Positions 18,775 through 54,677 of a stretch of DNA of 64,000 bases are shown here, in pieces. The notes under the pieces were generated by a model. The model ran no database searches, had not been told where the DNA came from, and saw nothing but the letters and a program-made list of their open reading frames with translations. Position numbers and translations under genes: made by a program. Positions within the stretch are counted from its first letter, which is position 1; each line of letters begins with the position of its first letter. Source of the stretch: Solibacillus sp. FSL R5-0449 (GTDB lineage Bacteria > Bacillota > Bacilli > Bacillales_A > Planococcaceae); contig NZ_CP150239.1 of NCBI RefSeq assembly GCF_037975215.1, positions 2,642,001 through 2,706,000 on the forward strand, given 5' to 3'.

Positions 18775-19090
18775 TTCTAATATATTTGCAGAAGTTCTAA
18801 TATAAATTTATTTGTTCTAATATATTGCCGATCTTCTAATATAAATGCGGTTTGTTCTAATAAGTGTCCCGGATGTTCAAATAAGTTATGTACTTCTTCT
18901 AATATCCTGTCTCAATCTTCAAATAACCCGCTCATATGTTCTAATAAAATTCAGACATAGCTTCTTCTCGCTGATTTTACCGGCAATAAAGATTCTCCTG
19001 CACCTCAAATTTACGGATTTTCTAATATCCATCCCAGTTCTTCTAATATCACTTGAATTTCTTCTAATAAACCACTCTATTGTTCTAATA
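18775..19090 (+). repeat. Phased TTCTAATA repeat array 1
   Basis: Thirteen copies of TTCTAATA (two as TTCAAATA) starting at 18775, 18795, 18815, 18834, 18855, 18875, 18897, 18918, 18939, 19020, 19041, 19062 and 19083. Steps are 19-22 bp, with one 81-bp gap. The bases between copies are not conserved. The array fills the space between two convergent genes. Open frames through it are not conserved because steps are often not multiples of three, so it is a DNA element and not a coding repeat. Confidence 0.88.
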
Positions 19091-19163
19091 AATCCCGAAC
19101 ACCAACTCAAAAAAAAGGATGCAGACGATCCTAAACCGTCCACACCCGCTACATTAACCCACC

Positions 19164-19517
19164 TTACTTCGCTTCTTCAATTGCTTCCATTAAAGCCGGG
19201 AATAGATTTGCATCGTCCGCATCTTCATCTGTTACTTCATTTAAAATTTCAAAATCATCTGCGTCGATGACAAACAGGCTCATGCCGTCTTTTAAAAATT
19301 CATCGGCTTCTACTTCCCCTTCGTAATATTGATACGTTGCTAACACGATGTTTGAACCTTCTTCTTCATCAAAGAAGTAATAAAGCTTTGCCGTGTTGCC
19401 ATAAACTTCTTCCAACACATCTTCCAACGCTTCCGTACCTTTACTCCATTTCACTTCATTATTTACTGTCGCTGCCACTAGCGATTCTAATAATTCATCT
19501 ACTGTATTTGTCATCAT
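19164..19517 (-). CDS. Small acidic hypothetical protein
   Basis: A 117-residue strongly acidic protein (ALEDVLEEVYGNTAK, VTDEDADDANLFPALMEAIE) without signal peptide or membrane segments. Two neighbouring ATG codons follow GGAGGCTT; the first is used here. Pattern suggests a small soluble alpha/beta cytoplasmic domain. I do not recognise the family. It stands alone, its 3' end facing repeat array 1. Confidence 0.7.
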   Translation of the reverse strand: MMTNTVDELLESLVAATVNNEVKWSKGTEALEDVLEEVYGNTAKLYYFFDEEEGSNIVLATYQYYEGEVEADEFLKDGMSLFVIDADDFEILNEVTDEDADDANLFPALMEAIEEAK

Positions 19518-19597
19518 AAGCCTCCAACTCCGCTTTAGTTCGCGGTTAGTATTCCCACTGTATCACAAATTTAACGATAAACGTTAAAGGCAGATTA

Positions 19598-21244
19598 TTA
19601 ACTACTCAAGATTTGTTCATTTACCTCATAATGCGCCGCGAATAACTTTGCGATCGTCAAATCAAGGAGATCGACTAATGGTCCAAACGCAAAATCCGCA
19701 TCCAGTCTTTCTGTCCATTTATGCGGGTCTCTCCCTACCGGACCGATGTTCAGCACCGGTACATTCAGCTTTTTCATATCATCGATCGGCAGCGAGTAGC
19801 CTTTATCCCACATCGGCATATTGTTTATAAGCGATTCAATCGAACTGTTTTCATTATTCAACCCTACATAGCTTAAATCCGATATTCCGGCAAAGTAGTT
19901 TTGAACTGTAAACTTCATATTATATGTTTCATGCGAGTATTCCTTCAATTCATTTACAAGATTGCTGATGAGTCTCGTTTTGCCGGAACTGATTGCAGGA
20001 TAAAATGGCGGTGCAAAGAAAATGACAATCATCGGTGCCAGTTCATTACATAACGCAGCTAATTGGTCAACAAGATCAATCGTTCGTTCCCGATCGTCTT
20101 TTTCACTGTCACAGTTTGATAGAAGCTCTTCAACCCGCTCTTCGCCGTATTTCTCCAGCGCATAGTCGTAAATTTCCTCATACGTCATGACCTTCACTTT
20201 AAGCTGCTGCGGTGTAAACTCCGTATGCTGTGAATACTTTGTCGCTTTGCTCATATAGGACTGTTCGATTTCAGTTGCCGCATTGATCGCTTTTTGCTGA
20301 AGCATTGATACAACATCTGTCATGCTTCTTTCAAATAAAAATAAATTAAACAAGGTTACAGCCCGGTGCGAAATTTGAGTGGAATACTCCGTTTTCAAGT
20401 CACGGTAAATTAAATTCGTTGGTGGCGGTGTCGTTTCTACGCCCACCTTTTCGCAAAAGTCCATATTTAATTCCATTTCAGCTGTGATGACCGATGCCAT
20501 ATAATTCGCATTCAGTCCCCCGAACGGTTCCCCGACATGGGCTTCCTTCCCGTAGCATAAAAAGCCCGGCAATGCTTTTCCGATTGAGCCGGTATAGAAG
20601 TAATTATTTAGGTCCCCAGGAAAATTGCTGAACATCGGCTCTGAATTTAAAATCGTCGTATATTCAAGATTATATTTTTCCGCTAGCTGTACAAGTTGTG
20701 GAACCGCTGCCCGCATTCCTTCAGAGTTTACTTCTTCATCAGGAACGGTCAATAAAAGAATGTTGCCGTCATATTCTTCGTATGTCGCCTGTTCTACAAT
20801 GGACATATGCAAAGCAAGCCCGCACTTCATATCCATCGTGCCTCTGCCGAATAACCAGTTTCCGTTGTCTAGATCAACTCGTACTGCTTCCGGCAAGTTA
20901 TCTTTCACCGAGTAAAATTGTTCAGTCAGCTTCTCAGGATCGAAAGCATATTGTTTCCACTTCCCGTAATCCTGTACATCCACCACATCAAAGTGACTAA
21001 CTAACACGACTGTCTTTTTCGTAACCGGAGTTTTTTTGACCAATGCGCTAATGAAACTGCGCCCATCACTCAAATATGTTCGATTTAAATGGTCAGGGTA
21101 TTCTTTGAAATACGCCAGCTCCGACAGTTTACTCACTACAACTTCAGGAAAATCCTTTTCAGCCTGGGAACCCGATACACTTTGCACTTGTACAAGTTCA
21201 CCTAATAATTGCCTTAACTGCTCTTTGCTCTTCCATTTAAACAC
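19598..21244 (-). CDS. M20 family peptidase, RocB-like
   Basis: A 548-residue M20/M25/M40 metallopeptidase of the RocB type (RocB of B. subtilis, arginine utilisation operon, is of similar length). Metal-site motifs are visible: VVLVSHFDVVDVQDYG, GRGTMDMKCGLALHM and LLTVPDEEVNSEGMRAAVP. These enzymes bind two zinc or cobalt ions and hydrolyse peptide or N-acyl bonds; the precise substrate of RocB is not settled. No roc genes are adjacent, so a link to arginine is only by family. Single gene, about 300 bp downstream of the next operon's terminator. Confidence 0.85.
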   Translation of the reverse strand: MFKWKSKEQLRQLLGELVQVQSVSGSQAEKDFPEVVVSKLSELAYFKEYPDHLNRTYLSDGRSFISALVKKTPVTKKTVVLVSHFDVVDVQDYGKWKQYAFDPEKLTEQFYSVKDNLPEAVRVDLDNGNWLFGRGTMDMKCGLALHMSIVEQATYEEYDGNILLLTVPDEEVNSEGMRAAVPQLVQLAEKYNLEYTTILNSEPMFSNFPGDLNNYFYTGSIGKALPGFLCYGKEAHVGEPFGGLNANYMASVITAEMELNMDFCEKVGVETTPPPTNLIYRDLKTEYSTQISHRAVTLFNLFLFERSMTDVVSMLQQKAINAATEIEQSYMSKATKYSQHTEFTPQQLKVKVMTYEEIYDYALEKYGEERVEELLSNCDSEKDDRERTIDLVDQLAALCNELAPMIVIFFAPPFYPAISSGKTRLISNLVNELKEYSHETYNMKFTVQNYFAGISDLSYVGLNNENSSIESLINNMPMWDKGYSLPIDDMKKLNVPVLNIGPVGRDPHKWTERLDADFAFGPLVDLLDLTIAKLFAAHYEVNEQILSS

Positions 21245-21442
21245 AACATACCCTCTCCCTTTGTATAGTTCTAGCTGTCTCCCTATACCATCTCATTTTT
21301 CTCAGTGTAAATAAGCGAGAATATTCCGTCAATATTTATTTAAAACTATATTAATCTTTGATAATTGCAATTTATGTAAGGAATAACGAAAAAAATAAAG
21401 GTTTTCGGCAAACGAATATATCTGACATACGAACTGTAATAT

Positions 21443-21502
21443 AAAAAAGACGCTTAATCATTGCTTGCCGGAAATTTCCCAACTTGCCTCAATTAAGCGT
21501 CT
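21443..21502 (-). terminator. Rho-independent terminator of the YtrA-type operon
   Basis: AGACGCTTAAT and its perfect complement enclose a 33-base loop that can form a smaller inner stem (GGAAATTTCC). The minus strand ends in six T. It lies in the 310-bp gap between the M20 gene and the operon; nothing else was recognised in that gap. Confidence 0.85.
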
Positions 21503-21554
21503 AACTATTATTTAGCTCCAAAATCAGTTGGCAGCCAAGTTCAATGAGCTTCTA

Positions 21555-22718
21555 TTATTCGGTTAAATCATAAAAATTATCTGCCCAAATAGAATAATTT
21601 TGTTTTATATTATTATTAGAAAGCTTTCCTTCATATAATACTATCCCTTTTTCGACATCGAAAATTTGAAGTACGTAATTGTCATCCATTTCATTCATTA
21701 CGTATAATTTCCCATTGATTGCTGACATACCATTTAGTTCAATATTCGAGTTCATCGGTTGCGGGAACTTCAACGGTTCAAGCCATCGCTGCTGTCCGAT
21801 ATTGTAGCGGTAGATTACCTTTTCTGTACTTTCTGTATATGCGATAACTAAGTAATTATCATCGACTGCAATCGATTGCAGCTTTTGTTCCAAACCTTCT
21901 GGTAACTGAATAGCTGTCACTTCATTCGTTTCTGTATTGAGTGCGTGGAATTCACGTGAAAGTATATGTTGTTCCGGATTTTTTTGATCATAAGAATTTA
22001 CTGAATAAACATGGTATCTTTCATGCCCTAAGTTAAAATTCGTATTATAGGAATCGATACTGGCCCTAGTGTTTTCGTCACTTGCCACTTCCTCAATCAA
22101 AGTTTCGCTCAACAGCTGTTGCTTTTTCAGGTCAATCATGACTTGATACAACTGTTCCCTTCCATCATGATTTACTTGCTTTACAAGAAGTTTCAGCTCA
22201 TTATCGACAACCGTTATATCAATGTAGAAAACCCAATTCAACCTGCTTTTCAATTGTGATTTGATTTCAAATGAACTTGTCGTGTCCTTCACTTTATCCA
22301 ATACGTCAACCTTATAGCTGTATGTTTCGCCTTCTTTTACCTTCCAGGCTTCTTCTGGGTCTTTCACAAAAACTAGCTTCGTGTCGTCTTCAAAATAATT
22401 ATTTGCAATGAGTGCTTTTCCGCGCATAAAGCTTTTATGCTCGTCAATTAGTTTCTGAAATACTAGCGGTCTTCTATTATAAGGGGAAGAATCCATTAAT
22501 GTCGTTTCTTCTTCACTAATAAGAACTGAACCATATCCCGCCCCATAATCAACATTTGCTTCGATAACGACCGAATCTAAATAGTTATCGTCACCTGAAA
22601 TTTTTTCAAATGTAAATTTATAATCCGTGTTTTTTGCATTTACTACTTGTATGTAGTGCACGCTTAACGTTACAACGATCACTCCTGCAATTAAAAGGAG
22701 TTGCCAATATTTTTTCAT
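21555..22718 (-). CDS. Hypothetical membrane-anchored protein of the YtrA-type ABC operon
   Basis: About 387 residues from ATG 22718, which follows GAGGAGGGAA; the upstream ATG at 22739 has no ribosome site. One N-terminal membrane segment (KYWQLLLIAGVIVVTLSVHY) anchors an extracellular region with repeated beta blocks (KQQLLSETLIEEV, LVIAYTESTEKVIYRYNIGQ, KLYVMNEMDDNYVLQIFDVE) suggestive of a beta-propeller. Fourth and last gene of the operon with a GntR regulator, ATPase and permease, overlapping the permease stop. It may be an accessory or sensor subunit of the exporter. No named family recognised. Confidence 0.78.
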   Translation of the reverse strand: MKKYWQLLLIAGVIVVTLSVHYIQVVNAKNTDYKFTFEKISGDDNYLDSVVIEANVDYGAGYGSVLISEEETTLMDSSPYNRRPLVFQKLIDEHKSFMRGKALIANNYFEDDTKLVFVKDPEEAWKVKEGETYSYKVDVLDKVKDTTSSFEIKSQLKSRLNWVFYIDITVVDNELKLLVKQVNHDGREQLYQVMIDLKKQQLLSETLIEEVASDENTRASIDSYNTNFNLGHERYHVYSVNSYDQKNPEQHILSREFHALNTETNEVTAIQLPEGLEQKLQSIAVDDNYLVIAYTESTEKVIYRYNIGQQRWLEPLKFPQPMNSNIELNGMSAINGKLYVMNEMDDNYVLQIFDVEKGIVLYEGKLSNNNIKQNYSIWADNFYDLTE

Positions 22719-22731
22719 GCATTTCCCTCCT

Positions 22732-23556
22732 CTACACATTAATCTTTCGTCTTAATAAATAATCTGCCAAATAAACCGCAAGCGCAATTGCTAAAATACT
22801 GCTTCCAATGGTCATTAAAATAATTTCATTTATATAAAAGAAGTCGGTAATTTCCTGAATGATAACTGGAATGATTATAACAATCACTGAAATAACGATA
22901 TAAATCAGTGCAAAGAAAATCCCTTTAAGTTGATAGCTTCGTTCAAATAAAACGGCAGTAAAAATGATTGCGATCAGTGCTGCCCCTAGTCCGTAATAGA
23001 AAATAAATTGTAACGGTGAATTCGGGTATAATATTTCCAGCACATCAGAAGAATAAATATAAATAATGCTCAGATCCAAATGCAGTTGTTCCGGGACAAT
23101 CGAGCGAATGATTCGTTTCACGACTTCCAATATAATAATCTGCATCCCCAATAAACCAAAAACGAAGAGCAATATCGTTGTAAATTTGGCGAAATATACA
23201 TTAAGACGTGCTGTAGGGAGCATGAGTAAACGATAAATAACCGATGATTTTCCTAACCAGTCACGATACCAAATGAAAAAGACATAAATCATAAGTAAAG
23301 CTGCTGCAAATACAATAGATAGAATGAAGTATTCCGAATATAAAAAGTTTTGCAGTGAGTAGGCTCCGTAGTTTTGAATATACTCGCTTACTGCCATTTG
23401 CTCACGCAGCATCGTTGTCTCCGCATTGTCTACATAATGTAAAGACGTAAGAATGGCGCCGATAATTTGGGCTGCTGCTACCGCAATTATTAAAGCTAGA
23501 AAGAATTTGCTAAATCGCTTCACTTCGAAATTGACGAGTTTTATATAGTGATTCAT
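22732..23556 (-). CDS. ABC-2 type transporter permease
   Basis: A 274-residue membrane protein with six hydrophobic segments in the ABC-2 arrangement: FSKFFLALIIAVAAAQIIGA, then FILSIVFAAALLMIYVFFIW, and later GLGAALIAIIFTAVLFE and an Ile/Val-rich pair near the end. The ATG overlaps the stop of the ATPase (ATGA). It should form the channel for the ATPase in the same operon; substrate may be a peptide antibiotic, lipid or other envelope-active compound, as in ytr-like systems, but this is inference. Confidence 0.83.
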   Translation of the reverse strand: MNHYIKLVNFEVKRFSKFFLALIIAVAAAQIIGAILTSLHYVDNAETTMLREQMAVSEYIQNYGAYSLQNFLYSEYFILSIVFAAALLMIYVFFIWYRDWLGKSSVIYRLLMLPTARLNVYFAKFTTILLFVFGLLGMQIIILEVVKRIIRSIVPEQLHLDLSIIYIYSSDVLEILYPNSPLQFIFYYGLGAALIAIIFTAVLFERSYQLKGIFFALIYIVISVIVIIIPVIIQEITDFFYINEIILMTIGSSILAIALAVYLADYLLRRKINV

Positions 23557-24242
23557 CCGACATACACCTCCCGCATTACATCGACTACGGATTTGCCTTC
23601 TGTTTCCCGCATCTGTTCTACATTCATTTCTCTTAATACTCGGCCGTCTCCAATGAGCACCGCCTTGTCGATTAAATGCTCAATATCATTAATTTCATGT
23701 GTTGTAATAATGACGCCGCGGTTTTCAATTAAATGACTCGTAAAGACGTTCGCAATTTGTTCTCTTGAAAAGATGTCGATTCCTGAAAACGGCTCATCCA
23801 TCAGTATGTAGTCCACATCTAATGCCAAGCCAAGCAGTAAATTGACTTTTGCCGTGTTCCCTTTTGACAAGCTTGAAATTTTATCGCTCGGATCCAGTTG
23901 AAAAAAGGCAAGAAGTTCTGTTGCCCGCTGTTCATTCCATACTTTATAAAAATCGGCCATAAACTCGAAGCTTTGTGCAATTGTATAGTTTGGTGACATT
24001 GTGAGGCGGTCTGGAATATACGTAATTTTTTCGTATGCGTCTTTGCTGATTTTTTTGCCATCGATTAATATTTCGCCACGGTCAATCGGCGTGAGCGCCA
24101 TAATTGATTTCATAATGGTCGTTTTTCCTGCACCGTTAATTCCGATCAGGCATGTAATTTGCCCTTTTTCTGCAGTAAAGCTCATATCTTTCAATACTTG
24201 CTTTCTTTTATATTTTTTAGAGACATTTTTTACTTCAATCAC
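23553..24242 (-). CDS. ABC transporter ATP-binding protein (YtrB-like)
   Basis: About 229 residues from GTG 24242, which overlaps the stop of the regulator gene and follows GGAG. Walker A IGINGAGKTTIMKS, signature SLSKGNTAKVNLLLGLA, Walker B YILMDEPFSGID, switch ITTHEINDIEHLID. The signature LSKGN deviates from LSGGQ as in the YtrB/EcsA branch of exporters. Works with the permease encoded next. Confidence 0.88.
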   Translation of the reverse strand: MIEVKNVSKKYKRKQVLKDMSFTAEKGQITCLIGINGAGKTTIMKSIMALTPIDRGEILIDGKKISKDAYEKITYIPDRLTMSPNYTIAQSFEFMADFYKVWNEQRATELLAFFQLDPSDKISSLSKGNTAKVNLLLGLALDVDYILMDEPFSGIDIFSREQIANVFTSHLIENRGVIITTHEINDIEHLIDKAVLIGDGRVLREMNVEQMRETEGKSVVDVMREVYVG

Positions 24243-24612
24243 GCTGCTCCGCCTCCTCATACTGTTTCTGTACGAGCTCCATTATTTCGGGAAGTGGCGC
24301 ATTGATTGATTTTATGGAACTGATAAATACTTGCACCGCTTCACTGATTAATTCTTCACGAACACTTTTTAGTACCGTTTCATCTTTCGTAATGCAACTT
24401 GGCATATTACCTTCTGTATAAATCAATTTCTGCTCCTCCATTTCCTTATAGGCGCGCTGCACTGTATTCGGGTTGATTTTGAGCTGATTGGCCAACTCCC
24501 GTCTTGATGGTATGACGTGGCCTGGCGCAAACGAACCTTTTGCAATTTGCTCTTTAAAATGACGGATAACCTGCACATACACAGGATCCCGGTTATTGAA
24601 TTTCACATCCAC
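24235..24612 (-). CDS. GntR family regulator, YtrA subfamily
   Basis: A 125-residue YtrA-type regulator: N-terminal winged helix (YVQVIRHFKEQIAKGSFAPG, PSRRELANQLKINPNTVQRA) and a short C-terminal helical dimerisation domain, too small for a metabolite-binding domain. Such regulators repress their own ABC operon and respond to cell-wall antibiotics or envelope stress. First gene of the operon; repeated TTAATACA/TGTATTAA motifs upstream are probable operators. Confidence 0.87.
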   Translation of the reverse strand: MDVKFNNRDPVYVQVIRHFKEQIAKGSFAPGHVIPSRRELANQLKINPNTVQRAYKEMEEQKLIYTEGNMPSCITKDETVLKSVREELISEAVQVFISSIKSINAPLPEIMELVQKQYEEAEQRD

Positions 24613-24696
24613 CTTATTCAGCTCCTTTCGTGTATTACTCCCTTAGTACACTATCCGCAAAAAAATACCGCTACGAACTGTACTCTGTACTAACCT

Positions 24697-24769
24697 CTTA
24701 ATACAGTATGCATAAAAAAATGTATTAAGCACTTCATACACCTAATAAGTGTATTATGTGGTTAATACA
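24697..24769 (-). promoter_or_regulatory. Candidate YtrA operators
   Basis: CTTAATACA at 24697-24705 and TGTATTAAG at 24721-24729 form a perfect 9-bp inverted repeat 15 bp apart. A second pair, TGTATTAT at 24750-24757 and TTAATACA at 24762-24769, follows. All lie upstream of the YtrA-type gene, in the promoter region shared with the end of the transglutaminase gene. Confidence 0.6.
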
Positions 24770-24790
24770 TTTCTTTGTCAATATTATTTT

Positions 24791-26086
24791 TTACAGGTAA
24801 TCATTTACAGCAGTTTTCGGATAATCCGATTTAATCCATTCATGGTCTTTTGAAAGTTTCTCATCGCTTATAAGGAAATACTGGTAATGGACTCGATCTC
24901 CCTGATCCGGAACCGGGTCATTCCATGTAATATCAAGGTGATACCACTGTCCATCCACTTTCACCAAATTCCAGGCATGTGGTCCCCCTGCATTTCCGAC
25001 AACATATTTCGCCTCGATATCGAGTGCTTCAAACATTAATAAAGCGGCCAATGCATATCCTTCACAGACACCTTCGCCATTCATTAATACAGAATACGGT
25101 GTATGGGGATTCGCTTTACTGTTCACATTGTACGCTGTGTGCACGACTAAATAATCATTTACAAATTTCACTTTCTCCGATTCCGTTGCATTGTCCGGAA
25201 TTGTATTGATAATTTGATCGATTTTCCCGAGAACAATGGCATTTTCCTCTGCAGTCAAATCATAGTTGACCGTTGCATTCCATTCCACTTTATTGCCATA
25301 GTATTTGGCACGTGTTGAGAACTCGCCCATGACCGCCCATAAATACGGTTCATTTTTTTCCAGCCATGCAAATACTTCATCGATTGTCGTTTCAAAATCG
25401 GAGACATCCCCCTCATAGTACACCGTAAACTGATGTTCAAACTGCGACATATGATGGGCGATTGCCTGGCCTAACTGCTCTACATTTGTTACTGCCTGCG
25501 GTAAATCTTTTACATCATAAACCGGAACGACTTTCTTATTCGCCAAATCCTGAAAGTTAAAGCTTTGCAGTTTATTTTCACCTTGCATAAAGCTTGTCAC
25601 GATCTGATCGATTTTATCTTCCAAGTTAACATTCAGTTTCAGTTGAATGTTTTCGTCAACTGTCGGCAATGTCAATGAAGAGGCTTTTACTTCGTCTTTC
25701 AAAATTCCGCCTGAAAGAATTGTCGCGAGGAGAAAGAGACAGGTAAACAGCCCTTTCGAATACGTTAAGGCACTTGCATACAGTTTTGTAAAAGGATTTC
25801 TTGTCATACGATTTAATTCTGTATTTGCTTTCAGTTCGAACTTATCTCGGTCTCTGGAGGCAAATAATCGATTTGGTTTTGATGTCGCGTTATTATAAAC
25901 ACTTTTATATACGTCAAAAAGCTGTTGCTTATTTCCTTTTGCCAGTTTTATTTGTTTAATATGCTGTTTGATACCTTTTCGTATTCTACTGCGAATATAT
26001 AATTGTGCGGTAAAGGAACGTAAAAGCTTTATAAAAATTACTAGGACGATTAGAAAAATGATGGAAAAAATAATTAAATTACTCAT
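24791..26086 (-). CDS. Membrane-anchored transglutaminase-fold protein
   Basis: A 431-residue protein. Residues 1-22 form a membrane segment, a second one lies near 105-128, and the C-terminal 150 residues form a transglutaminase-like domain with the full triad: Cys in GEGVCEGYALAALLMF, His in GGPHAWNLVKVDG and Asp in WYHLDITWNDP. This cysteine-protease-like fold in bacterial envelope proteins may act as peptidase or cross-linking enzyme. GGGGGTAAT precedes ATG. Located head-on to nothing in particular; transcribed separately from the YtrA operon downstream. Confidence 0.83.
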   Translation of the reverse strand: MSNLIIFSIIFLIVLVIFIKLLRSFTAQLYIRSRIRKGIKQHIKQIKLAKGNKQQLFDVYKSVYNNATSKPNRLFASRDRDKFELKANTELNRMTRNPFTKLYASALTYSKGLFTCLFLLATILSGGILKDEVKASSLTLPTVDENIQLKLNVNLEDKIDQIVTSFMQGENKLQSFNFQDLANKKVVPVYDVKDLPQAVTNVEQLGQAIAHHMSQFEHQFTVYYEGDVSDFETTIDEVFAWLEKNEPYLWAVMGEFSTRAKYYGNKVEWNATVNYDLTAEENAIVLGKIDQIINTIPDNATESEKVKFVNDYLVVHTAYNVNSKANPHTPYSVLMNGEGVCEGYALAALLMFEALDIEAKYVVGNAGGPHAWNLVKVDGQWYHLDITWNDPVPDQGDRVHYQYFLISDEKLSKDHEWIKSDYPKTAVNDYL

Positions 26087-26265
26087 ATTACCCCCTACTA
26101 ATTTTCTTTATTTATTTCTATATTACTTAATTATAGTTTCAAATGATAAATAATATGCATGCCAATCTCATAAATCGTCGTTGTATTAGATTCCCCGTTC
26201 ATTATTGATAGAATAGCTTTATAGTGCATGAATTTTCCGAAAACGATTTACTTCCACAATGTAAA

Positions 26266-26281
26266 AGTGTAAAATTACACT
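26266..26281 (+). promoter_or_regulatory. Inverted repeat in front of the DUF2339 gene
   Basis: AGTGTAA-AA-TTACACT is a perfect 7-bp inverted repeat 39 bp before the GTG start. Its size and place fit a dimeric regulator operator. No regulator assigned. Confidence 0.4.
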
Positions 26282-26319
26282 AATAGAGTATCATTACTTT
26301 TGTTGAAAGAGGTGATTGT

Positions 26320-28407: not shown

Positions 28408-28420
28408 AATTGTTAGTTTA

Positions 28421-44821: not shown

Positions 44822-45343
44822 TTATTTAGACTGCTGGATTACTTTTTCTACATTATTCCATACATAAATCTCTTCATTTAATATCTCACCTGCTATATTT
44901 AATTGAACGGTTTTAACATACTCAGCACTATAATATTGATAAAACTGTCTTGTTTTATTCTCTGCTAAAACTTCAACATAGATTTTTTGATAACCCTGCT
45001 CTAAAAAGACATTCATAATTTGATTCAGTAGTTTTTTCCCGACTCTTTTGCCTTGCCATTCTTCAAGTAAATAAATCGATGTTAAATCGCTTGCTCCTGC
45101 CTCTTCATTTGTATTACGTTTGCCCCCTGTGACAAAACCAATAATTTCTCCCTCATTTTCTGCAACAAATATCATACTAGGCTTATCTGAAATATTGTTC
45201 TCCCAAAGTTTTGTACGTTGCTCATAGCTTAGCCCATCCAGAAAGCTCTGGGGAATAATGCCTTTATATGTAGTTCGCCAACTATCAACATGGACTTTGG
45301 CAATCCCCGGTGCATCACTTATAGTTGCTCTGCGAATAATCAT
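44822..45343 (-). CDS. GNAT family N-acetyltransferase
   Basis: A 173-residue acetyltransferase. Motifs: IRRATISDAPGIAKVHVDSW, SIYLLEEWQGKRVGKKLLNQ (acetyl-CoA loop) and EVLAENKTRQFYQYYSAEYV. It lies 20 bp after the stop of hisS on the same strand and may be cotranscribed with it. Substrate unknown; a role in the same stress or resistance response as hisS is possible but unproven. Confidence 0.88.
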   Translation of the reverse strand: MIIRRATISDAPGIAKVHVDSWRTTYKGIIPQSFLDGLSYEQRTKLWENNISDKPSMIFVAENEGEIIGFVTGGKRNTNEEAGASDLTSIYLLEEWQGKRVGKKLLNQIMNVFLEQGYQKIYVEVLAENKTRQFYQYYSAEYVKTVQLNIAGEILNEEIYVWNNVEKVIQQSK

Positions 45344-45363
45344 GACTTCTCTTCCCTTCCTAA

Positions 45364-46632: not shown

Positions 46633-46656
46633 ACGAATCCTCCTATTTTTGAGAAA

Positions 46657-46706
46657 TAAAAAAATCGTATAATGATAAAGCTCCAAAGCGGCTTTATTAT
46701 ACGATT
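46657..46706 (-). terminator. Attenuator (terminator) in the hisS leader
   Basis: On the minus strand AATCGTATAATAAAGC pairs with GCTTTATCATTATACGATT (three-base bulge) and is followed by seven T, ending about 15 bp before the hisS ribosome site. TAATAAAG in its 5' arm can instead pair with CTTTATTA at 46744-46751, just after the leader peptide, which would prevent the terminator. Confidence 0.82.
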
Positions 46707-46760
46707 CAATGCGAAAAAGTCTTCCTATTCATTATTAAAAATTTAATAAAGATAGCAAGA

Positions 46761-46817
46761 CTACTTAATATGAAGATGTAATTGTGCAAACTGCTGAGAA
46801 TATATGATGCCTTTCAT
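46761..46817 (-). CDS. Putative hisS leader peptide
   Basis: An 18-codon frame, MKGIIYSQQFAQLHLHIK, with GGGAG nine bases or so upstream. Two of its last five residues are His (HLH), as expected of a peptide on which ribosomes stall when charged tRNA-His is low. It sits between the promoter at 46847-46876 and the terminator in front of hisS. No T-box (AGGGTGGNACCGCG) is present. The short length makes it tentative as a gene but its place and codons are hard to explain otherwise. Confidence 0.6.
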   Translation of the reverse strand: MKGIIYSQQFAQLHLHIK

Positions 46818-46846
46818 AAAGTTCTCTCCCTTTTTTTAATTACTAC

Positions 46847-46876
46847 ACTATACCGTATGCTTCCATAATGTGTCAA
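46847..46876 (-). promoter_or_regulatory. Sigma-A promoter of hisS
   Basis: On the minus strand TTGACA at 46871-46876 and TATAGT at 46847-46852, 18 bp apart. Transcription would begin near 46840, just before the leader peptide ribosome site. Confidence 0.82.
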
Positions 46877-46914
46877 CTCTGGTTTAAGAATTTTCTATTT
46901 ATAACTGTGGGAAG

Positions 46915-47116
46915 TTCTAATATATTTTGAGATGTTCTAAAATATTTTTATTTCTTCTAATAAAGTTACGGTTTTCTAATATATTCGACTGGTGTTCTAA
47001 AAAGGGGGTGCGTTGTTCTAATATGACCGTCTGATTAGCTAATATCACTCGCACTTCTTCTAATATTCCGCAGGTTTCTTCTAATAAAAACCATCTTCAG
47101 AGAGAACTTCCTAATA
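46915..47116 (+). repeat. Phased TTCTAATA repeat array 2
   Basis: Copies start at 46915, 46935 (TTCTAAAA), 46955, 46974, 46995 (TTCTAAAA), 47016, 47037 (AGCTAATA), 47058 and 47079, with steps of 19-21 bp, plus a weak copy near 47109. Located between the divergent hisS promoter and the BMP lipoprotein gene, without overlapping either. Confidence 0.85.
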
Positions 47117-47235
47117 ATTGTTAATTATATGCAAAATTTTTTTATTTCATTTATTAAATGACAAGTATACGTTAAAATTGTAAATGTTGGAGGTCGAACT
47201 TCTACATAATGTATTTATTGTAAAGGACTGATGGA

Positions 47236-48210
47236 ATGAAAAGAAGATGGTTGTTTTTTATAAGTCTTCTCGTTGTAGTCGTGCTCTCTGCCTGCTCACA
47301 GAAGTCAGAGGAAGAGACAAAGGAACGGGTGAAAATTGGTGTCATGCTGTCAGATGCAGGACTTGGCGATCAGTCGTTTTCAGATCTTGCTTTTGAAGGT
47401 CTTGAGAAAGCACGCGATGAACTAGATATTACGTTTGATTACCGTGAACTTGAATTTACCGGTACATATAAGCAAGGATTGGAAGAACTCGTTGCGGAAG
47501 GACAGGATCTGATTATTGGGATCGGGTTTACAGTCCAGGAGGATATGGAAGCAGTAGCTGCTGCTAATCCGGACGAGCAATTTATATTAATCGACGCAGT
47601 GTCTGACCTGCCGAATGTTCACAATATAACTTTTAAAGAAGATGAAGGTTCCTATCTGCTAGGGGCACTCGCTGCGATGAAAACAGATAGTAATACAATC
47701 GGATTTATCGGTGGTGTTAAAAATGAAGTAATCGAGCGTTTTGAAACCGGATTTAAAGCAGGTGCCAAACAAGTAAAACCTGACATAGAAGTGTTATCCG
47801 AATATGCAGGTGATTTCGGGGATGATCAGCTAGGTGCTTCGATTGCCCGCGATATGATTGAGCAAGGTGCGGATTATATTTATCCTGCTGCCGGTTTTAC
47901 AGGGGTCGGCTCTATTTTGGCGGCACAGGAAGCCGGTGTACATGCATTCGGTGTGGACAGCGATCAGTTTTTCCTTGCTGAGGATACGATTGTTTCTTCG
48001 ATGCTAAAACAGGTGGATACTGCTGTTTATGAGGCAATTAAAGAAATCGCGGAAACAGGGACACTTTCGGAAAAAGATAAAGTGCTTGGCATTAAAGAAA
48101 ATGGTGTAAGTCTTGCACCAATCCGTGTTGTGAATTTAACTGCACAGGAACAAAAGCAAATTGAACAGTTACAGCAGGAGCTTGCGGACGGTCAAGTGAC
48201 GATTAAGTAG
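47236..48210 (+). CDS. BMP family ABC substrate-binding lipoprotein
   Basis: A 324-residue lipoprotein, lipobox LSAC with Cys20, then the basic membrane protein (BMP/PnrA/Med) fold: [59 protein letters not shown]. PnrA-type members bind purine nucleosides for an ABC importer; Med-type members have other roles. No ABC transporter genes are adjacent. Instead a chemoreceptor gene begins 19 bp downstream, so this lipoprotein may present its ligand to that receptor. Ligand unknown. Confidence 0.87.
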
Positions 48211-48229
48211 AAGAAAGGATCGTACAACA

Positions 48230-49879
48230 GTGAAATTAAAACAGAAAATATTAACGTTGGCATTGGTACCGCTGCTACTGGCTGTCTGTATTATCGGCTA
48301 TAATATTAGCCAGCTTATGAGCCTGAACGCATCAACGGAAGAAGTCGTGGATTCCTTAGTTGCCGTTGAGGAATTAAACAGCTCGGTTCAAAGCCTGCAA
48401 AAATCATTGAGCGTCTATTCGATCAATGTATCCGAGAACAACAAATATAATATCGAAACGGATTTAGCGAGAACTGAAGAAGTTTATAACAATCTGAAAG
48501 GCAGTTTTTCAACAGAACGCCAACGTCAAATTAGTGGACAGTTTGAAGAAAAGTTCGCAAAAATTTCCGAAGCGACTGCCGCTTCCCTACAGGAAACAAA
48601 TGTCGCGGAAATTAAGCGTCAATCCCAGCGTACGCGAGGAATCGTCAATGATGTAATCGAGCTGAAACGCGATGTGAGTGCAAACTATACGGCGATGCAG
48701 CAAGAGCTTGGCAATAAAATAAATGCGATTACATGGATTTCCATTATTTCTGCTATCGTGCTTATTATCGTAAGTGTCGTGTCGGCACTGTATTTCACAA
48801 ACAGAATTGTTGGCCGCATCGGTCGATTAACGACAGGCGCCAAAGAAATTGCTGCTGGGAATTTAAATGTGCAGTTTGAAGATCAGGAGGCTGATGATGA
48901 AGTTGGTGAACTGCAAACTTCATTCCGCCAAATGACAGGCAACTTAAAGGAAATCATTACGCATGTATCGGACAGTTCAGATCAGGTTGCAGCATCTGCC
49001 GAGGAGCTGATGGCCAGTGCCGATGAAACAATGCTTGGTACGGAACTGATTTCCACTTCCATTCAAAATGTATCGGACGCAGCGGACAAGCAAAAAGAAA
49101 TGTCGAGCTCCTCTGCCGCCTTTGCACAGAAAGTACTGGAAGAAGCTGAAGAAATTGCGAATCAGGCAACTCAGGCGACCGCATTGTCTATTTCAACTAA
49201 TGAAAAAATTGAGAAAGGTTCGGTGTATGTAGAAAACACCGTATCTCAAATGAACCTCATTCAGTCGACAGTAGAAGAAACAGCGGATTCGTTAACACTT
49301 CTTGCTAGCCGTACGACTGAAATCGTAAATATTTTAAAGCTTGTACAGGATATTTCCGATCAGACGAACCTGCTTGCACTGAATGCTGCAATTGAAGCAG
49401 CGCGTGCGGGTGAAGCTGGTAAAGGCTTTGCTGTTGTGGCGGATGAAGTGAAGAAATTATCCGAGCAGACGAAGCAGTCCGTATCCGATATTTCGCGTAT
49501 TGCTGCTGAAATTGAAAATGATACGACGACAACCGTTTCATCGATCCAGCAAGTGAAAGAACGCGTCAATGCCGGGATTACAATTTCGCATGATACGAAG
49601 GCAACGTTTGACGAGATTCTTGCTATTATTGGGCAAGTACAAAATCAGGTAAATGAAATTACCGCTGTATCTGACAGCATCCATTCGAAAATGGAATCGG
49701 TGTCAGAGCAGTCACTGCAAATGGCTGCGGTTTCCGAAACTACTGCAGACAATGCTGTGTCGGTAGCATCCGCTTCTGAGGAGCAGCTTGCTTCGATGTC
49801 GGAAGTGAATACTGCAGCCGGTTCCCTTGCTCATCTAGCTGAAGAGCTGCAAGGTATTGTGGCGAAGTTTAGAACTTAA
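48230..49879 (+). CDS. Methyl-accepting chemotaxis protein
   Basis: A 549-residue chemoreceptor: membrane segment 8-28, a four-helix sensor outside (30-160), second segment 163-190, HAMP (190-245) and the cytoplasmic signalling helix bundle with the conserved tip [23 protein letters not shown] start at 48230 follows GAAAGGATCG. It forms a probable operon with the preceding BMP lipoprotein (19-bp gap). It would control CheA and so swimming direction. The sensor ligand could be the lipoprotein in its bound form. Confidence 0.92.
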
Positions 49880-49892
49880 TATTATGTTCCAA

Positions 49893-49925
49893 CCGAAATC
49901 CTTTAATAGGGTTTCGGTTTTTTTA
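49893..49925 (+). terminator. Terminator of the BMP-chemoreceptor operon
   Basis: CCGAAATCC/GGGTTTCGG stem, 7-base loop and a T run, 13 bp after the stop codon. Confidence 0.9.
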
Positions 49926-49951
49926 TTGGGTTGGGGTGGATGGGCTGGGTT

Positions 49952-50412
49952 TATTAGAAGAATTGATACCGATATTGGAAGTCCGCGGAGGGTATTAGAA
50001 CATCTGTTAAGTTTATTAGAAGAGTTATATAAACGGGCTTCGAGTATGGCGAAGTTTCTTTATTTTACGAGTTGCGGGATACGGTTTCATGTTTTATTAG
50101 AAGAGTTGAATCTGATATTAGAAGATCACGAGTGGTTATTAGAACATCTGTTAAGTTTATTAGAAGTTATCTTTAAACGTGTTTAAAGTATAGGGTTGTT
50201 TTGCTTATGTAGCGAGTTGCGGGGTACGGTTTCATGTTTTATTAGAAGAGTTGAACCTGATATTAGAAGATCACGAGTCGTTATTAGAACATACATCGCC
50301 TTTATTAGCACATCTCGGATACTTATTAGAACAACCGGCACTTATATTAGAACATCGGACTTTTATTAGAAAACTTTTCGATATATTAGAACATCCCCAC
50401 AATTTATTAGAA
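49952..50412 (-). repeat. Phased TTCTAATA repeat array 3 (complement strand)
   Basis: Seventeen copies of TATTAGAA starting at 49952, 49973 (TATTGGAA), 49993, 50014, 50095, 50116, 50137, 50158, 50240, 50261, 50282, 50303 (TATTAGCA), 50324, 50345, 50364, 50384 and 50405. Most steps are 21 bp; two gaps of 81 and 82 bp. The segment at 49993-50136 is repeated with changes at 50137-50281, a tandem duplication of about 145 bp. It fills the gap between two chemoreceptor genes. Open frames in it encode LLEHxxx heptads, a by-product of the 21-bp step. Confidence 0.9.
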
Positions 50413-50620
50413 AAACCAACCTCAGCAATTCGATTCCATAAACAGAAATGTTATATGACAAAATATCCTGCTTAAACCATAATAAATTTTACTTAACTCC
50501 CAAACTTCATTTTTAGTCTAAATTACTACATACTCCCCTAAAAATTAGCCTTAATTACTTTAAATTTAAACCGAAGTTATAGATATATTTTAACTATGAC
50601 ATTCGGAGGAAAATTAAATT

Positions 50621-52306
50621 ATGAAAATTGGAAAGAAATTGTTCGGGAGCTTTGGTATCGTTGTTTTGATTCTTATTTTTCTCTCAGCTTTTTCTGTCAT
50701 GAAAATGACTGAAATTGATGAGGATTATTCGTTCGTAATAGAAGATCGAGTATATAAAGTAACGGAACTTTCGGTAATTCAAAATGCAACATCATTACAA
50801 GGGCTGTATGTCCGCTCTTATGTTTTACGCCAGGACCCAGCTGATTTAGAAAGCCTTACTACTCAAAGAGAGACGATTTCAAATACAGTCAGCGCCATCG
50901 AAGGATTATTCAAAACCGCTGAAATGCAGGAACAAATCGCTACTCTAAAAGAAAATGAAGTTTTATATAATGATTATGTATCTCAAATTATTGACTATGT
51001 GGATAGCGATGAGATCGAAAAAGCCACTAATATGCTATTTGAGTTTGCTGTACCAACAAACCGCAATATCCTGCAAACTATCAACAATATGGTTGATTTT
51101 CAAAAGGAACAAATGAATACGACAAGTGATGAAACTACAGCAAGTGCAGGTATCAGTAAAACGATGATGATTACGATTTCCGTAATTGGTGTTTTACTTG
51201 CATCATGCTTAGGCTTTTTTATTACCATCAGCATTACCCGCCCGTTACGCAGATTAACAAATGCGGCAAATGTAATTGCAAACGGCGATTTACGCGAGGA
51301 AGATATTCATGTCAAATCAAAAGATGAGATTAAGGAGCTTGCGACTGCCTTTAATGCAATGAAAGCCAGCCTTTCCAACTTAATCAATAATGTATCGCTG
51401 AATGTTTCTAGTGCAACAGCAGCTTCCGAACAGCTGGCGAGCAGTACCGATGAAGTGTCGGTTACTTCCGCTGATATTGCTAAACGTGTGGAAACCGTTG
51501 CTGAAGGCGGTAGTCATGCTGCAGCAATCGGAAATGATTGTGCAATCGCAATGGATGAAACAGCTCAAGGTGTAAGCCGAATCGCTGAAGCCGCGCAAGT
51601 ATTGAACTCACATGCAATGGATATGCAGACAATCGCAGGAGAAGGCGGTCACACGCTACACACAGCTGAACAGCAAATGTCAGTCATTCAGCAGTCTTCT
51701 TATGAAACAAAAGAAAAAATTAAGCAGCTGAGCAGACAATCTGCCGAAATCGAAAACATTACGAAAGTGATTACGGATATTACAGACCAGACAAACCTGC
51801 TTGCTCTTAATGCGGCAATTGAAGCGGCCCGTGCCGGAGAACATGGTAAAGGGTTTGCCGTTGTCGCTGACGAAGTGCGCAAACTGGCTGAGCAGTCGAA
51901 AAACTCGGCATCACAAATTGCCGGCTTAACATCGACGATTCAGGAAGATACGAGAGAAGTTGAAGAAAGCGTCAATGCAACGGTTCAAAATGTCGATCAA
52001 GGTGTTATTTACTTACAAAATGCGCAAGTTTCATTTAATCATATTGTCGGGTCGATTACAGAGATGACTGCTCAAATTCAGGAAGTATCTGCATCGTCCG
52101 AACAAATTTCCGCAAGTACTGAGGAAGTTGCGGCATCTGTTGCTGAGATGGCCCATGCAGCTAACAGTGCTGCAGGTGAAGTTGGTATTGTCCTATCGGC
52201 AGTTGAAGAACAAACTGCTACAATGCAGGAAATTAACGATGTCGCTCAATCATTGAGCGAAGGCGCTGTCGGTATTCAAGAACAAATCAATCAGTTTAAA
52301 GTGTAG
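50621..52306 (+). CDS. Methyl-accepting chemotaxis protein (4HB sensor)
   Basis: A 561-residue chemoreceptor with a membrane segment at 8-28, a four-helix-bundle sensor (30-185), a second segment near 187-207, HAMP (208-262) and the signalling domain with the tip [26 protein letters not shown] precedes ATG. Similar in length but clearly divergent in the sensor from the receptor at 48230. Single gene with a terminator. Ligand unknown. Confidence 0.92.
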
Positions 52307-52317
52307 AAAACGTGAAA

Positions 52318-52353
52318 AACGCAAAAGCTGGAACATCAGCTTTTGCGTTTATT
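52318..52353 (+). terminator. Terminator of the second chemoreceptor gene
   Basis: Perfect 13-bp stem AACGCAAAAGCTG/CAGCTTTTGCGTT with a 6-base loop. Confidence 0.9.
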
Positions 52354-52390
52354 TGTAGTGTTAGATACTGCTATCCTTCAATCCAACGAA

Positions 52391-52696
52391 TTAATCTGCT
52401 TGTACCATTTTCACTAGCACACTAGCTAATGATTTCTTTTCGCTTTCATCTGCTACTTTCCATAATTCCTGTAGCACTTTCTCTTCACTGTTTCGAGGTT
52501 CTTCGTTTTTAGCTAAATGATCCGCTACAAACTTTGCACCTTTAGCCAACATATCATCGCTCAAACCAAGTCGTTCACCTTTAGCAAGCTGGTCGTTCAA
52601 ATAACTTTTGAACGTTGAAAAGCTTTCTAAAATCTGATCCTTTTTTTCAGGAGATAATTCTTCAAGTTTCTTGTTGATGTTATTCATTTCACTCAT
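52391..52696 (-). CDS. DUF3243 protein (YmfJ type)
   Basis: A 101-residue small helical protein with the DUF3243 pattern: FSTFKSYLNDQLAKGERLG, AKFVADHLAKNEEPRNSEEK and VLQELWKVADESEKKSLASV. AGGAGGAATTACAAA precedes ATG. The family is widespread in Bacillales; its function is not known. Single gene, no membrane segments. Confidence 0.85.
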   Translation of the reverse strand: MSEMNNINKKLEELSPEKKDQILESFSTFKSYLNDQLAKGERLGLSDDMLAKGAKFVADHLAKNEEPRNSEEKVLQELWKVADESEKKSLASVLVKMVQAD

Positions 52697-52798
52697 TTTG
52701 TAATTCCTCCTAGATTGTGTTTTGGCGTTCCCCTAACAATTACCCGCCTCATACATAATTAAACTTTCTTTCAAAAAAGTCTTTGGACTACTTCTAGA

Positions 52799-52843
52799 AA
52801 AAAGGGCATTGCTTCACCTATACAATTCAGGTGAGCAGTGCCC
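52799..52843 (-). terminator. Terminator of the BCCT transporter gene
   Basis: On the minus strand GGGCACTGCTCACCT/AGGTGAAGCAATGCCC with six T, just after the stop codon of the transporter. Confidence 0.9.
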
Positions 52844-52853
52844 GGTCTGTCAT

Positions 52854-54422
52854 TTATTTTTTTAATTTAGTTTCGCTTTCAGTTTTTTCAATATGCTCCA
52901 TAATCCGTTTATGACGACGGACATCCCGCTTCGTAATAGGAATAATTTCATGTCGGATCATTTTAAAGAAGGAGACAATGAGTAAGAGCATGACGACTGT
53001 AAAAGGAAGTGCTGATATAAGTGAAGCCGTTTGCAATGCTTCAAGTCCGCCTGAAAACAATAGTACACTTGCAATCGCAGCGATTAATACACCCCATATT
53101 ACTTTTAATCTGTTATGAGGGTTCAATGTCCCTTTATCCGTCATACTTGCCATAATAAATGTGGCTGTGTCGCCTGAAGTAATAAGGAAAATGACAATTA
53201 ACACAATCCCTAAAATAGAAGCGATCGTTGTTAACGGAAGCTGTTCCAACATCAGGAACAAGGCGACAGTCAAATCAGTATTAACGGCTTCGGCGATTGT
53301 TGTGCCTTTGTTCAGATCAAAGTAAAGTGCTGAACCGCCAAATACCGCGATCCAGAAACAAGAAATTACCGGTGGAATGATTAAAACCCCTACGATAAAT
53401 TCACGGATGGTACGTCCTCTCGATACGCGCGCTACGAAAGACCCGACAAATGGTGACCAGGCAATCGCCCACGCCCAATAGAAAATTGTCCAGTCCTTTA
53501 CCCACGTTCCCCCGGCATACGGCTGCAAACGTAAGCTGTACTGGACGAAATTCGTAATATAATCACTGATCGCTAAAACGAAAGTTTCCATGATGAAAAC
53601 TGTAGGGCCTGTAACAAAAACAAATAACAGTAAGATTATGGCTAAGTACATATTTACATTACTTAATATACGAATCCCCTTTTGTAGGCCACTTATGGAA
53701 GATGCCATATATCCAATGAAAACTACAGCTATGATTGCTAACTGTACCCAAATTGAAATCGGTGTGTTAAAGACGGCATTTAGACCACCGTTCGTTTGCA
53801 AAACACCTAAGCCGATTGATGTGGCAACACCCATTACAGTAGCAATAACAGCCAAAATATCTACCGTATTTTTAATGCCGCGATTTGTTCCTGTGACAGG
53901 CTCTAACGCCGTAGATATTAATAAATCCCTTTTTTTGTTGAACTGCATATAGGCCATAACTAAACCGATAATCGCAAATACTGACCATTGGCTAATTCCC
54001 CAGTGGAAAAAAGCATAACCCATTGCGAGACGGGCAGCATCTGTTGTTTGCGCTTGAACATCGTTAAACGGTGTTTTAAAATAATGACTCATCGGTTCGG
54101 CAACACCCCAGAAAACTAATCCGATACCTAGACCTGCCGCAAACAGTAGCGCAATCCATGTATGGAACTTAAATTCCGGTCTTGCATCTTTTCCGCCTAG
54201 ACGAATTTTCCCGAACTTGGAGATTGCCAGTACTAAAAGAAAGACAATAATAATAAATACGGACAGCAAGTAAAACCATCCAAAATAGTCGGTTGTTAAA
54301 TTAAATAAATATGTAGCAATATTACTAAAGGCATCGGGTGCCACACTCCCAAAAATAACACAAATTAAAATAAATGCTGCTGATACTGTAAATACAGTAT
54401 TCGAAAAATATTTCCCTTTCAT
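52854..54422 (-). CDS. BCCT family glycine betaine/choline transporter (OpuD type)
   Basis: A 522-residue BCCT transporter with twelve membrane segments. Signature: TIFYWAWAIAWSPFVGSFVA in the substrate site with its tryptophans, followed by RVSRGRTIREFIVGVL; also HTWIALLFAAGLGIGLVFWG. BCCT proteins import betaine, choline or carnitine with Na+ as osmoprotectants. AAGAGGTGAAC lies before ATG. Single gene. The exact compatible solute cannot be read from sequence. Confidence 0.92.
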   Translation of the reverse strand: MKGKYFSNTVFTVSAAFILICVIFGSVAPDAFSNIATYLFNLTTDYFGWFYLLSVFIIIVFLLVLAISKFGKIRLGGKDARPEFKFHTWIALLFAAGLGIGLVFWGVAEPMSHYFKTPFNDVQAQTTDAARLAMGYAFFHWGISQWSVFAIIGLVMAYMQFNKKRDLLISTALEPVTGTNRGIKNTVDILAVIATVMGVATSIGLGVLQTNGGLNAVFNTPISIWVQLAIIAVVFIGYMASSISGLQKGIRILSNVNMYLAIILLLFVFVTGPTVFIMETFVLAISDYITNFVQYSLRLQPYAGGTWVKDWTIFYWAWAIAWSPFVGSFVARVSRGRTIREFIVGVLIIPPVISCFWIAVFGGSALYFDLNKGTTIAEAVNTDLTVALFLMLEQLPLTTIASILGIVLIVIFLITSGDTATFIMASMTDKGTLNPHNRLKVIWGVLIAAIASVLLFSGGLEALQTASLISALPFTVVMLLLIVSFFKMIRHEIIPITKRDVRRHKRIMEHIEKTESETKLKK

Positions 54423-54630
54423 ATGTTCACCTCTTTAAGTACATTGAAGAGAAGATACCCATATTATTCTATTTTTAAACATCCTTACTATGAATGTTAC
54501 TATCTCTCTATAACTATTTTGGCGGTATACGTTGGATTTACTACTAATTTTTATTATTTTCTAAAATACTATTGCAACGCATTCGAATATAATATTTTTC
54601 GCATGACCGTTCATCAGAGCTAAGGGGGGT

Positions 54631-54677
54631 TATTAGAACTTCCGAGTTTTATTAGAAGAATTTTTGTGATATTAGAA
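54631..54677 (-). repeat. Phased TTCTAATA repeat array 4 (complement strand, short)
   Basis: Three copies of TATTAGAA start at 54631, 54650 and 54670 (steps 19 and 20). Located between two leftward genes, upstream of the BCCT gene. The smallest of the four arrays. Confidence 0.78.

What the first reader, a model, noticed from the sequence alone, without database searches (positions are those of the whole stretch)
18775..54677. Family of intergenic TTCTAATA arrays with a two-helical-turn step
Four intergenic regions hold 42 copies (exact or one or two mismatches) of one 8-mer. Steps are 19-22 bp, mostly 21, i.e. two turns of B-DNA, while the bases between copies vary. Three larger gaps (18939 to 19020, 50014 to 50095, 50158 to 50240) are 81-82 bp, about four units, so helical phase is kept. 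Copies occur on either strand relative to genes and between convergent, divergent and tandem genes, so gene regulation in cis is not required. A cooperative DNA-binding protein on one face of the helix, such as a nucleoid or partition factor, would explain it. I know of no described element with these features.
Basis: partly seen in the sequence, partly recalled or inferred. Interest (0 to 1): 0.85.

Follow-up and report, generated by a model that had tools for sequence, protein, structure and literature searches.

The report
Two-turn DNA motif arrays behind genes
Behind the ends of many genes in this bacterium lie arrays in which one short DNA word recurs about every two turns of the double helix; evolution keeps the words and their exact spacing but not the letters between them, so an unknown protein probably lines up on them, and I found no earlier description.

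Summary
The window lies in a genome of genus Solibacillus (inferred). TTCTAATA occurs 38 times in the window (3.9 expected), 35 of them in four intergenic arrays; genome-wide, 325 pairs lie at 19-22 bp, reversed control 0. Of 46 arrays studied, most share one step pattern: 20/21-20-19-21-21-21-21-20/21, often followed by 81/82 bp and 21-21-21. In 26 orthologous loci of a sister species the motif differs at 3.4% of sites and spacers at 22.6% (fourfold sites 25.8%); 260 of 271 steps are identical. Spacers show no codon phase and no RNA covariation. Arrays sit behind gene ends, often between convergent genes; 2 of 46 lie between divergent genes. AAGTAGAA, TTTAGTC and GGATTAA form arrays of the same step, GGATTAA also in two other families of Bacilli; Ureibacillus uses TTCTAATA with 21-21-21-40. 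Best explanation: spaced binding sites for an unidentified DNA-binding protein, perhaps a transcription or topology barrier at gene ends. Selection on motif and spacing is shown; DNA rather than RNA is inferred; protein and function are unknown.

The parts
18775..18946 (+). Array A1, block M1-M9 of TTCTAATA; steps 20,20,19,21,21,21,21,21
18947..19019 (+). Array A1, mid-gap between M9 and M10 (81-bp step)
19020..19090 (+). Array A1, block M10-M13; steps 21,21,21
46915..47086 (+). Array A2, M1-M9 (six exact copies, the others with one or two mismatches)
50240..50412 (-). Array A3, block M1-M9 on the minus strand
50095..50165 (-). Array A3, first block of four motifs after the 82-bp step
49952..50021 (-). 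Array A3, second block of four motifs after an 81-bp step; looks like a local duplication
54631..54677 (-). Array A4, truncated remnant with three exact motifs; the sister species G003 has the full pattern at this locus
19117..19147 (-). Terminator-like hairpin between the right-hand converging ORF and A1 (consensus match; 0.6 expected in shuffles)
49891..49919 (+). Terminator-like hairpin between the upstream ORF (48230-49879) and A3 (consensus match; 0.5 expected in shuffles)

Best explanation
Each array is a row of binding sites for a sequence-specific DNA-binding protein that contacts the 8-bp motif about once every two helical turns, so on one face of the DNA, and probably assembles side by side into one nucleoprotein body of about 170-300 bp. 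Shown: motif and exact spacing are conserved while spacers drift; several motif families share the same step. More speculative: because arrays sit just behind gene ends, often between convergent genes, the body may act where transcription ends, as a barrier to read-through or as a device that holds or absorbs positive supercoils.
For: Genome-wide excess, control 0. Most of 46 arrays share one architecture. 26 orthologous loci, G000 vs G003: motif 88/2599 = 3.4%, spacer 777/3435 = 22.6%, flanks 945/6051 = 15.6%; gap openings 15 in 6034 aligned array bases against 113 in 6051 flank bases; 260 of 271 steps identical. Yardsticks from 175 ORFs: fourfold sites 6228/24165 = 25.8%, codon positions 1+2 2.7%. 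Steps of 19-22 bp dominate; the mid-gap is 81/82 (20 of 28) or 71/72 (8 of 28), about one turn apart. No codon phase in spacers: 0.246, 0.236, 0.251. No Watson-Crick covariation. TTCTAATA arrays point either way relative to tandem genes (17 vs 11). Placement: 16 convergent, 28 tandem, 2 divergent; convergent/divergent contrast with array-free gaps p = 0.0014 over all gaps. Same step with other motifs; at one locus G003 holds a TTTAGTC array where G000 has TTCTAATA.
Against: No binding protein is known and none was tested. The lattice argument is weak: over all 805 inter-motif gaps R is 0.85 near 10.3 bp, but that count is dominated by 19-21-bp steps and their multiples; the 47 larger gaps not explained by a worn motif are mostly 81/82 and do not single out a period (R 0.82 at 10.3, 0.88 at 10.8; distinct lengths 0.48 at 10.3, 0.73 at 11). 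Exact spacing alone would also fit RNA. GGATTAA and AAGTAGAA arrays lie mostly in the sense direction of the upstream gene (11 vs 2 tandem cases, p = 0.022). Avoidance of divergent gaps is p = 0.06 over all gaps and stronger only when short gaps are left out (0.0007 at 100 bp or more). Sites within an array should be redundant, yet nearly all are conserved; the truncated A4 still has three exact copies. Within the motif the fastest positions (1, 4, 7) are those expected for wobble in the TTA-GAA frame. The fourth base of M6 is A in 51% and T in 40%.
Confidence: 0.55

Rival explanations
1. The arrays act as RNA: read-through or 3' UTR transcripts carry the motif about every 21 nt for an RNA-binding protein or small RNA.
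For: Arrays lie downstream of genes. GGATTAA and AAGTAGAA arrays are mostly in sense direction. Spacing conservation alone does not exclude RNA.
Against: TTCTAATA arrays are about as often antisense as sense (17 vs 11 tandem, p = 0.34). Some follow a terminator-like hairpin (and by eye). No covariation; no Rfam family above its gathering score on array A1.
Confidence: 0.15
2. BIME-2-like topology sites: the arrays attract gyrase or another topoisomerase directly, without a dedicated protein.
For: Placement at gene 3' ends and between convergent genes, where positive supercoiling collects (PMC8360656, passages). E. coli gyrase sites show phased 10-bp G/C variation and lie downstream of transcribed operons (PMC6379681, passages).
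Against: Here the period is two turns, and an exact 8-mer, not general G/C phasing, is conserved. The patchy distribution (11 of 16 genomes of the genus) does not fit a universal enzyme.
Confidence: 0.1
3. Selfish dispersed repeats (MITE- or iteron-like) kept by their own mobility or by a mobile element's binding protein, with no host function.
For: One family in dozens of copies, local tandem copies, patchy taxonomic distribution, a motif family replaced at one locus.
Against: 31 of 34 paired loci keep the array at the same site, so turnover between these two species is low; motif and spacing are under selection in the 26 loci pooled; no clean empty site or target duplication was found in the alignments printed.
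Confidence: 0.13
4. Remnants of a protein with 7-residue repeats: 21 bp is seven codons and the reverse strand reads (I/L)LE(H/E/D)xxx.
For: Reverse-strand frames read as heptads over long parts; motif mismatches fall mostly at TTA-GAA wobble positions.
Against: Spacer substitutions have no codon phase (0.246, 0.236, 0.251); stops are common; steps of 19, 20 and 40 break the frame.
Confidence: 0.02

Closest known systems
Plasmid iterons and type II centromeres (Rep- or ParR-binding direct repeats); features recalled, not looked up
   Same: Direct repeats about two helical turns apart with a conserved core, bound cooperatively.
   Different: Here dozens of arrays spread over a chromosome, at gene ends, with spacers that drift near the neutral rate.
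REP/BIME-2 elements of enterobacteria (features partly recalled; gyrase link seen in PMC6379681 passages)
   Same: Dispersed, extragenic, near gene ends.
   Different: BIMEs are built of palindromes; this motif is not palindromic, all copies in an array point one way, and no pairing was seen.
GapR-type binding at overtwisted DNA (PMC8360656, passages)
   Same: Enrichment at 3' ends and between convergent genes.
   Different: GapR recognises overtwist, not a fixed 8-mer with fixed spacing; no GapR search was made here.
DNA-binding tandem-repeat proteins such as pTERF (PMC11417379, abstract, sections 52 and 53 and passages)
   Same: Bacterial repeat proteins, most in Bacillota, two members with differing DNA motifs.
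   Different: No link to arrays in a genome is reported in the parts read; named only as a kind of candidate reader, not tested.

Membership tests
Plasmid iterons | Direct repeats with about two-turn spacing | tested here: met
   steps 19-21 in most arrays
Plasmid iterons | Located at a replication origin beside a rep gene | tested here: inconclusive
   46 arrays are dispersed over the chromosome, but their neighbour genes were not annotated systematically
REP/BIME-2 | Palindromic units able to form hairpins | tested here: not met
   motif not palindromic; no covariation; only 1 of 8 spacers weakly self-complementary, z 2.7
REP/BIME-2 | Extragenic, absent from divergent promoter regions | tested here: met
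   2 of 46 divergent by my own ORF calls; against all array-free gaps p = 0.06, against gaps of 30 bp or more 0.005
REP/BIME-2 | RAYT transposase in the genome | not tested
   no search made
CRISPR arrays | Repeats of about 24-40 bp with unique spacers and cas genes (recalled) | tested here: not met
   8-bp motif, 11-13-bp spacers; cas genes not searched
Structured RNA element | Compensatory base changes | tested here: not met
   38 of 45 copies, 17,621 column pairs, z from -3.73 to 3.68, sd 1.02
Protein-coding repeat | Third-codon-position excess of substitutions | tested here: not met
   spacer columns 0.246, 0.236, 0.251

The most novel reading that the evidence does not exclude
A so far undescribed kind of bacterial chromatin: a set of related DNA-binding proteins, each with its own 7-8-bp word, builds two-turn-spaced nucleoprotein bodies behind gene ends in several lineages of Bacilli, where they wall off transcription units or buffer positive supercoiling; the word can change while the geometry and sometimes the site stay.
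Probability: 0.33. Interest if true: 0.95.

Novelty: categorically new. Interest (0 to 1): 0.83.

Why it matters
At least 459 exact copies of one 8-bp word in 46 arrays are held at about the constraint of codon positions 1+2, with spacing kept to the base, and neither reader nor role is known. The pattern makes a direct test possible: pull down the protein and ask whether bacteria build sequence-programmed boundaries at gene ends. A family with interchangeable words could also give orthogonal DNA-organising parts.

Tried and rejected
Coding heptads: attractive because 21 bp is seven codons and reverse frames read LLE repeats; rejected by codon phase in spacers. RNA structure: within-element complementarity looked suggestive inside spacers, but its null favours self-comparison; with columns dealt anew only spacer S4 keeps an excess (z 2.7, 1 of 8); column-pair covariation is null.

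Helical lattice: one search gave R 0.85 over 805 gaps with zero phase at 10.3 bp; on checking, 182 of the 229 gaps of 24 bp or more have a worn motif beside them, and the other 47 do not single out a period. I lowered the main odds from 0.60 to 0.55, raised RNA from 0.12 to 0.15 and cut the novel case from 0.35 to 0.33 for this.

Placement: the background of gaps of 100 bp or more (8 convergent, 87 tandem, 35 divergent; p = 4e-7) is biased, because an array itself lengthens its gap; over all gaps it is 39, 213 and 43, p = 0.0014.

Phage origin: scans of viral contigs gave 13 and 17 stretches; of 24 printed, 17 have an open frame through the repeats; of the other 7, L328 and L347 have varied spacers and stay unclear. 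One search gave 102 stretches (80 named in its listing, all scanned); outside Solibacillus and Ureibacillus most arrays have spacer identity of 0.54 or more, that is near-tandem repeats; L183 (0.33, three copies) and L127 (0.56) are unclear.

Two sister genomes without TTCTAATA arrays, G009 and G010, were sampled (200 kb each): no chain at step 19-22.

Empty sites: none clean. G000 1307796 is a truncated element in G003; 1248732 holds another motif family in G003; 367496 has no array at the mapped site, but G003 has one about 1.2 kb away.

Binding protein: not found; ORFs beside two low-copy arrays in G001 were listed and not annotated further. Literature: (motifs TTCTAATA and GGATTAA, Lysinibacillus and Solibacillus repeats, two-turn and dispersed repeats, iterons, gyrase/BIME-2); none of the titles and abstract starts listed describes such arrays. 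One search matched 787 papers and listed 20, so the motif search is far from complete. PMC12306157 (REP survey): one passage seen, nothing used.

Counts dropped: 8 of 34 paired loci left out (327312, 367496, 1248732, 1307796, 2696501, 313393, 2878154, 2880467: interrupted, absent, truncated or copy-number differences); 12 of 46 found no flank pair in the G003 stretches fetched. One search aligned 45 copies from 41 of the 46 arrays. The 46 are not all arrays of the genome: five more places are in the listings.

Full report
What was checked. TTCTAATA occurs 38 times in the window against 3.9 expected. In the whole genome (G000, 3,582,823 bases; window at 2,642,001-2,706,000) pairs at 19-22 bp number 325, the reversed control 0. 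An unbiased count of any 7-mer repeated at least four times in a chain gave 143 chains at step 19-22 in 378,536 bases of G000 stretches, 134 of them parts of this motif; none at 14-17, 24-27 or 29-33, and 49 at 40-43; in G003 stretches 136, 0, 0, 5 and 37. These stretches were chosen because they hold arrays.

Architecture. I fetched stretches around arrays and found 46, with 459 exact motifs. Most have nine motifs at steps 20 or 21, 20, 19, 21, 21, 21, 21, 20 or 21. Many continue after 81/82 bp (or 71/72) with further motifs at 21 bp. The 19-bp step is a landmark: 48 exact cases in the genome. Most motif positions are 90-100% conserved; the fourth base of M6 is an exception (A 51%, T 40%). 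Bases on either side prefer A or T; the middle of the spacer is open. Spacers are richer in G on the left and in C on the right of the element, unexplained.

Selection. In the sister species G003 (stretches, loci), 34 of 46 loci could be paired by flanks; 31 hold an array at the same site. In 26 clean loci the motif differs at 88 of 2599 sites (3.4%), spacers at 777 of 3435 (22.6%), the mid-gap at 488 of 1523 (32%), flanks at 945 of 6051 (15.6%; these include gene ends). Gap openings are 15 in the array (6034 bases), 8 in mid-gaps, 113 in flanks. Steps are identical in 260 of 271. Fourfold degenerate sites of 175 ORFs in the same stretches differ at 25.8%, codon positions 1+2 at 2.7%. So spacers drift about neutrally while motif and distance are kept. 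An earlier pass over 17 loci, some without a G003 array, gave 6.4% and 25%, and over 13 of them 3.4% and 22.8%. In two truncated copies a leftover motif has decayed, as expected when a constraint ends; the truncated A4 in the window, however, keeps three exact copies.

DNA, RNA or protein. Spacer substitutions show no codon phase (0.246, 0.236, 0.251). No column pair covaries beyond chance in 38 non-redundant copies. Steps of 19-22 bp are near two helical turns, and 81/82 and 71/72 differ by one. I first took the whole set of gaps as a 10.3-bp lattice (R 0.85, 805 gaps). Checking showed that the larger gaps are mostly multiples of the step with a worn motif between, and that the 47 others, mostly 81/82, do not fix a period. 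That a protein reads DNA is therefore an inference from the motif, the exact spacing near two turns in several families, and the indifference of TTCTAATA arrays to the direction of transcription (17 vs 11 in tandem gaps, p = 0.34).

Place in the genome. By ORF calls of my own, 46 arrays lie between tandem genes (28), convergent genes (16) or divergent genes (2). Array-free gaps of any length in these stretches plus five more are 213, 39 and 43: the convergent/divergent contrast has p = 0.0014, avoidance of divergent gaps p = 0.06. With gaps of 100 bp or more the figures are 87, 8 and 35 and p = 4e-7, but that cut favours the claim. Terminator-like hairpins lie between gene and array in A1 and A3; more are seen by eye.

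Other motifs, other genera. Non-TTCTAATA chains in the G000 stretches occur only at steps 20-22 and 41-43 among all steps from 10 to 47. AGTAGAA triples are found in 6 of 16 genomes of the genus and in none of 85 others, TTTAGTC triples in 5 of 16, GGATTAA triples in G000. Several AAGTAGAA arrays repeat 21,21,21,21,40; in L285 the 40 splits into 19+21 with TATTAGAA inside. GGATTAA arrays also fill G067, a genome of another family (45 triples, control 0), and occur in G350 of a third (3 triples, surroundings not read); in all 3 of 398 Bacilli. For TTCTAATA triples, 13 of 261 family genomes are positive: 11 of 16 in the window's genus and 2 of 25 in one other genus, controls 0. Named records put the motif in Solibacillus faecavium, S. 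merdavium and S. palustris and in Ureibacillus manganicus and U. acetophenoni, the latter two with 21,21,21,40. That the window's genus is Solibacillus follows from G015, of the same genus, sharing two contig lengths with S. palustris. GGATTAA and AAGTAGAA arrays run mostly in the sense of the upstream gene (11 vs 2 tandem, p = 0.022), a result that fits RNA or a polar barrier. At locus 1248732, G003 carries a TTTAGTC array where G000 has TTCTAATA.

Mechanism. I commit to spaced protein-binding arrays on DNA (0.55). For function the placement is the only clue: positive supercoiling is enriched between convergent genes, and GapR sits at 3' ends (PMC8360656, passages); gyrase sites in E. coli are enriched downstream of transcribed operons (PMC6379681, passages). 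A barrier to read-through, or a body that holds overtwisted DNA, would use such places. This step is speculation.

Novelty. Iterons have a similar geometry and BIMEs sit in similar places (features partly recalled), but this is not shown to be either: the palindrome test for BIMEs failed and the origin test for iterons is open. I found no description in the papers listed; the library holds open-licence texts only.

Noticed in passing
L314 4239, L285 1375, L287 1499 and other loci: AAGTAGAA arrays with steps 21,21,21,21,40; in L285 the 40-bp step contains TATTAGAA 19 bp after the last motif, linking this family with the TTCTAATA family.
   Followed up: partly
L300-L313 (G067) and G350: GGATTAA arrays at 20-21 bp steps in other families of Bacilli; 12 of 13 G067 arrays found follow a gene in sense direction. 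G350 was only seen in the listing.
   Followed up: partly
L247 near 10458-10550 (G003:C1:1316458): TTTAGTC/TTTAGCC array at 21-bp steps, in place of the TTCTAATA array that G000 has at that locus; G005 and G007 hold similar letters.
   Followed up: partly
21 bp left of M1 and about 34 bp right of M9 in 45 aligned copies: The left flank is G/T-rich and the right flank C/A-rich, a skew switch across the element.
   Followed up: no
spacer S4 (between M4 and M5): Slight self-complementarity in this one spacer, z 2.7, 1 of 8 spacers tested.
   Followed up: partly
window 46650-46880: Hairpin with a T-run on the minus strand and a possible very short ORF near array A2; the site may not be truly divergent. 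Read by eye.
   Followed up: no
window 8528-8594: Bacillaceae-1 RNA (Rfam RF01690, 79.1 bits).
   Followed up: no
L127 (Bacteroidia MAG): TTCTAATA array with steps 21,20,21,41,19,21,20 without an open frame; spacer identity 0.56. Origin unclear.
   Followed up: no
L218 (G003, locus 327312): In G003 the array is interrupted by about 1.4 kb of other DNA.
   Followed up: no
L072 and L078: An array lies between the same two kinds of gene (a 309/312-aa ORF and an enolase-like ORF, named by eye) in G001 and G000, but with 7 motifs at 21 bp in G001 and the 20-20-19-21 pattern in G000.
   Followed up: partly
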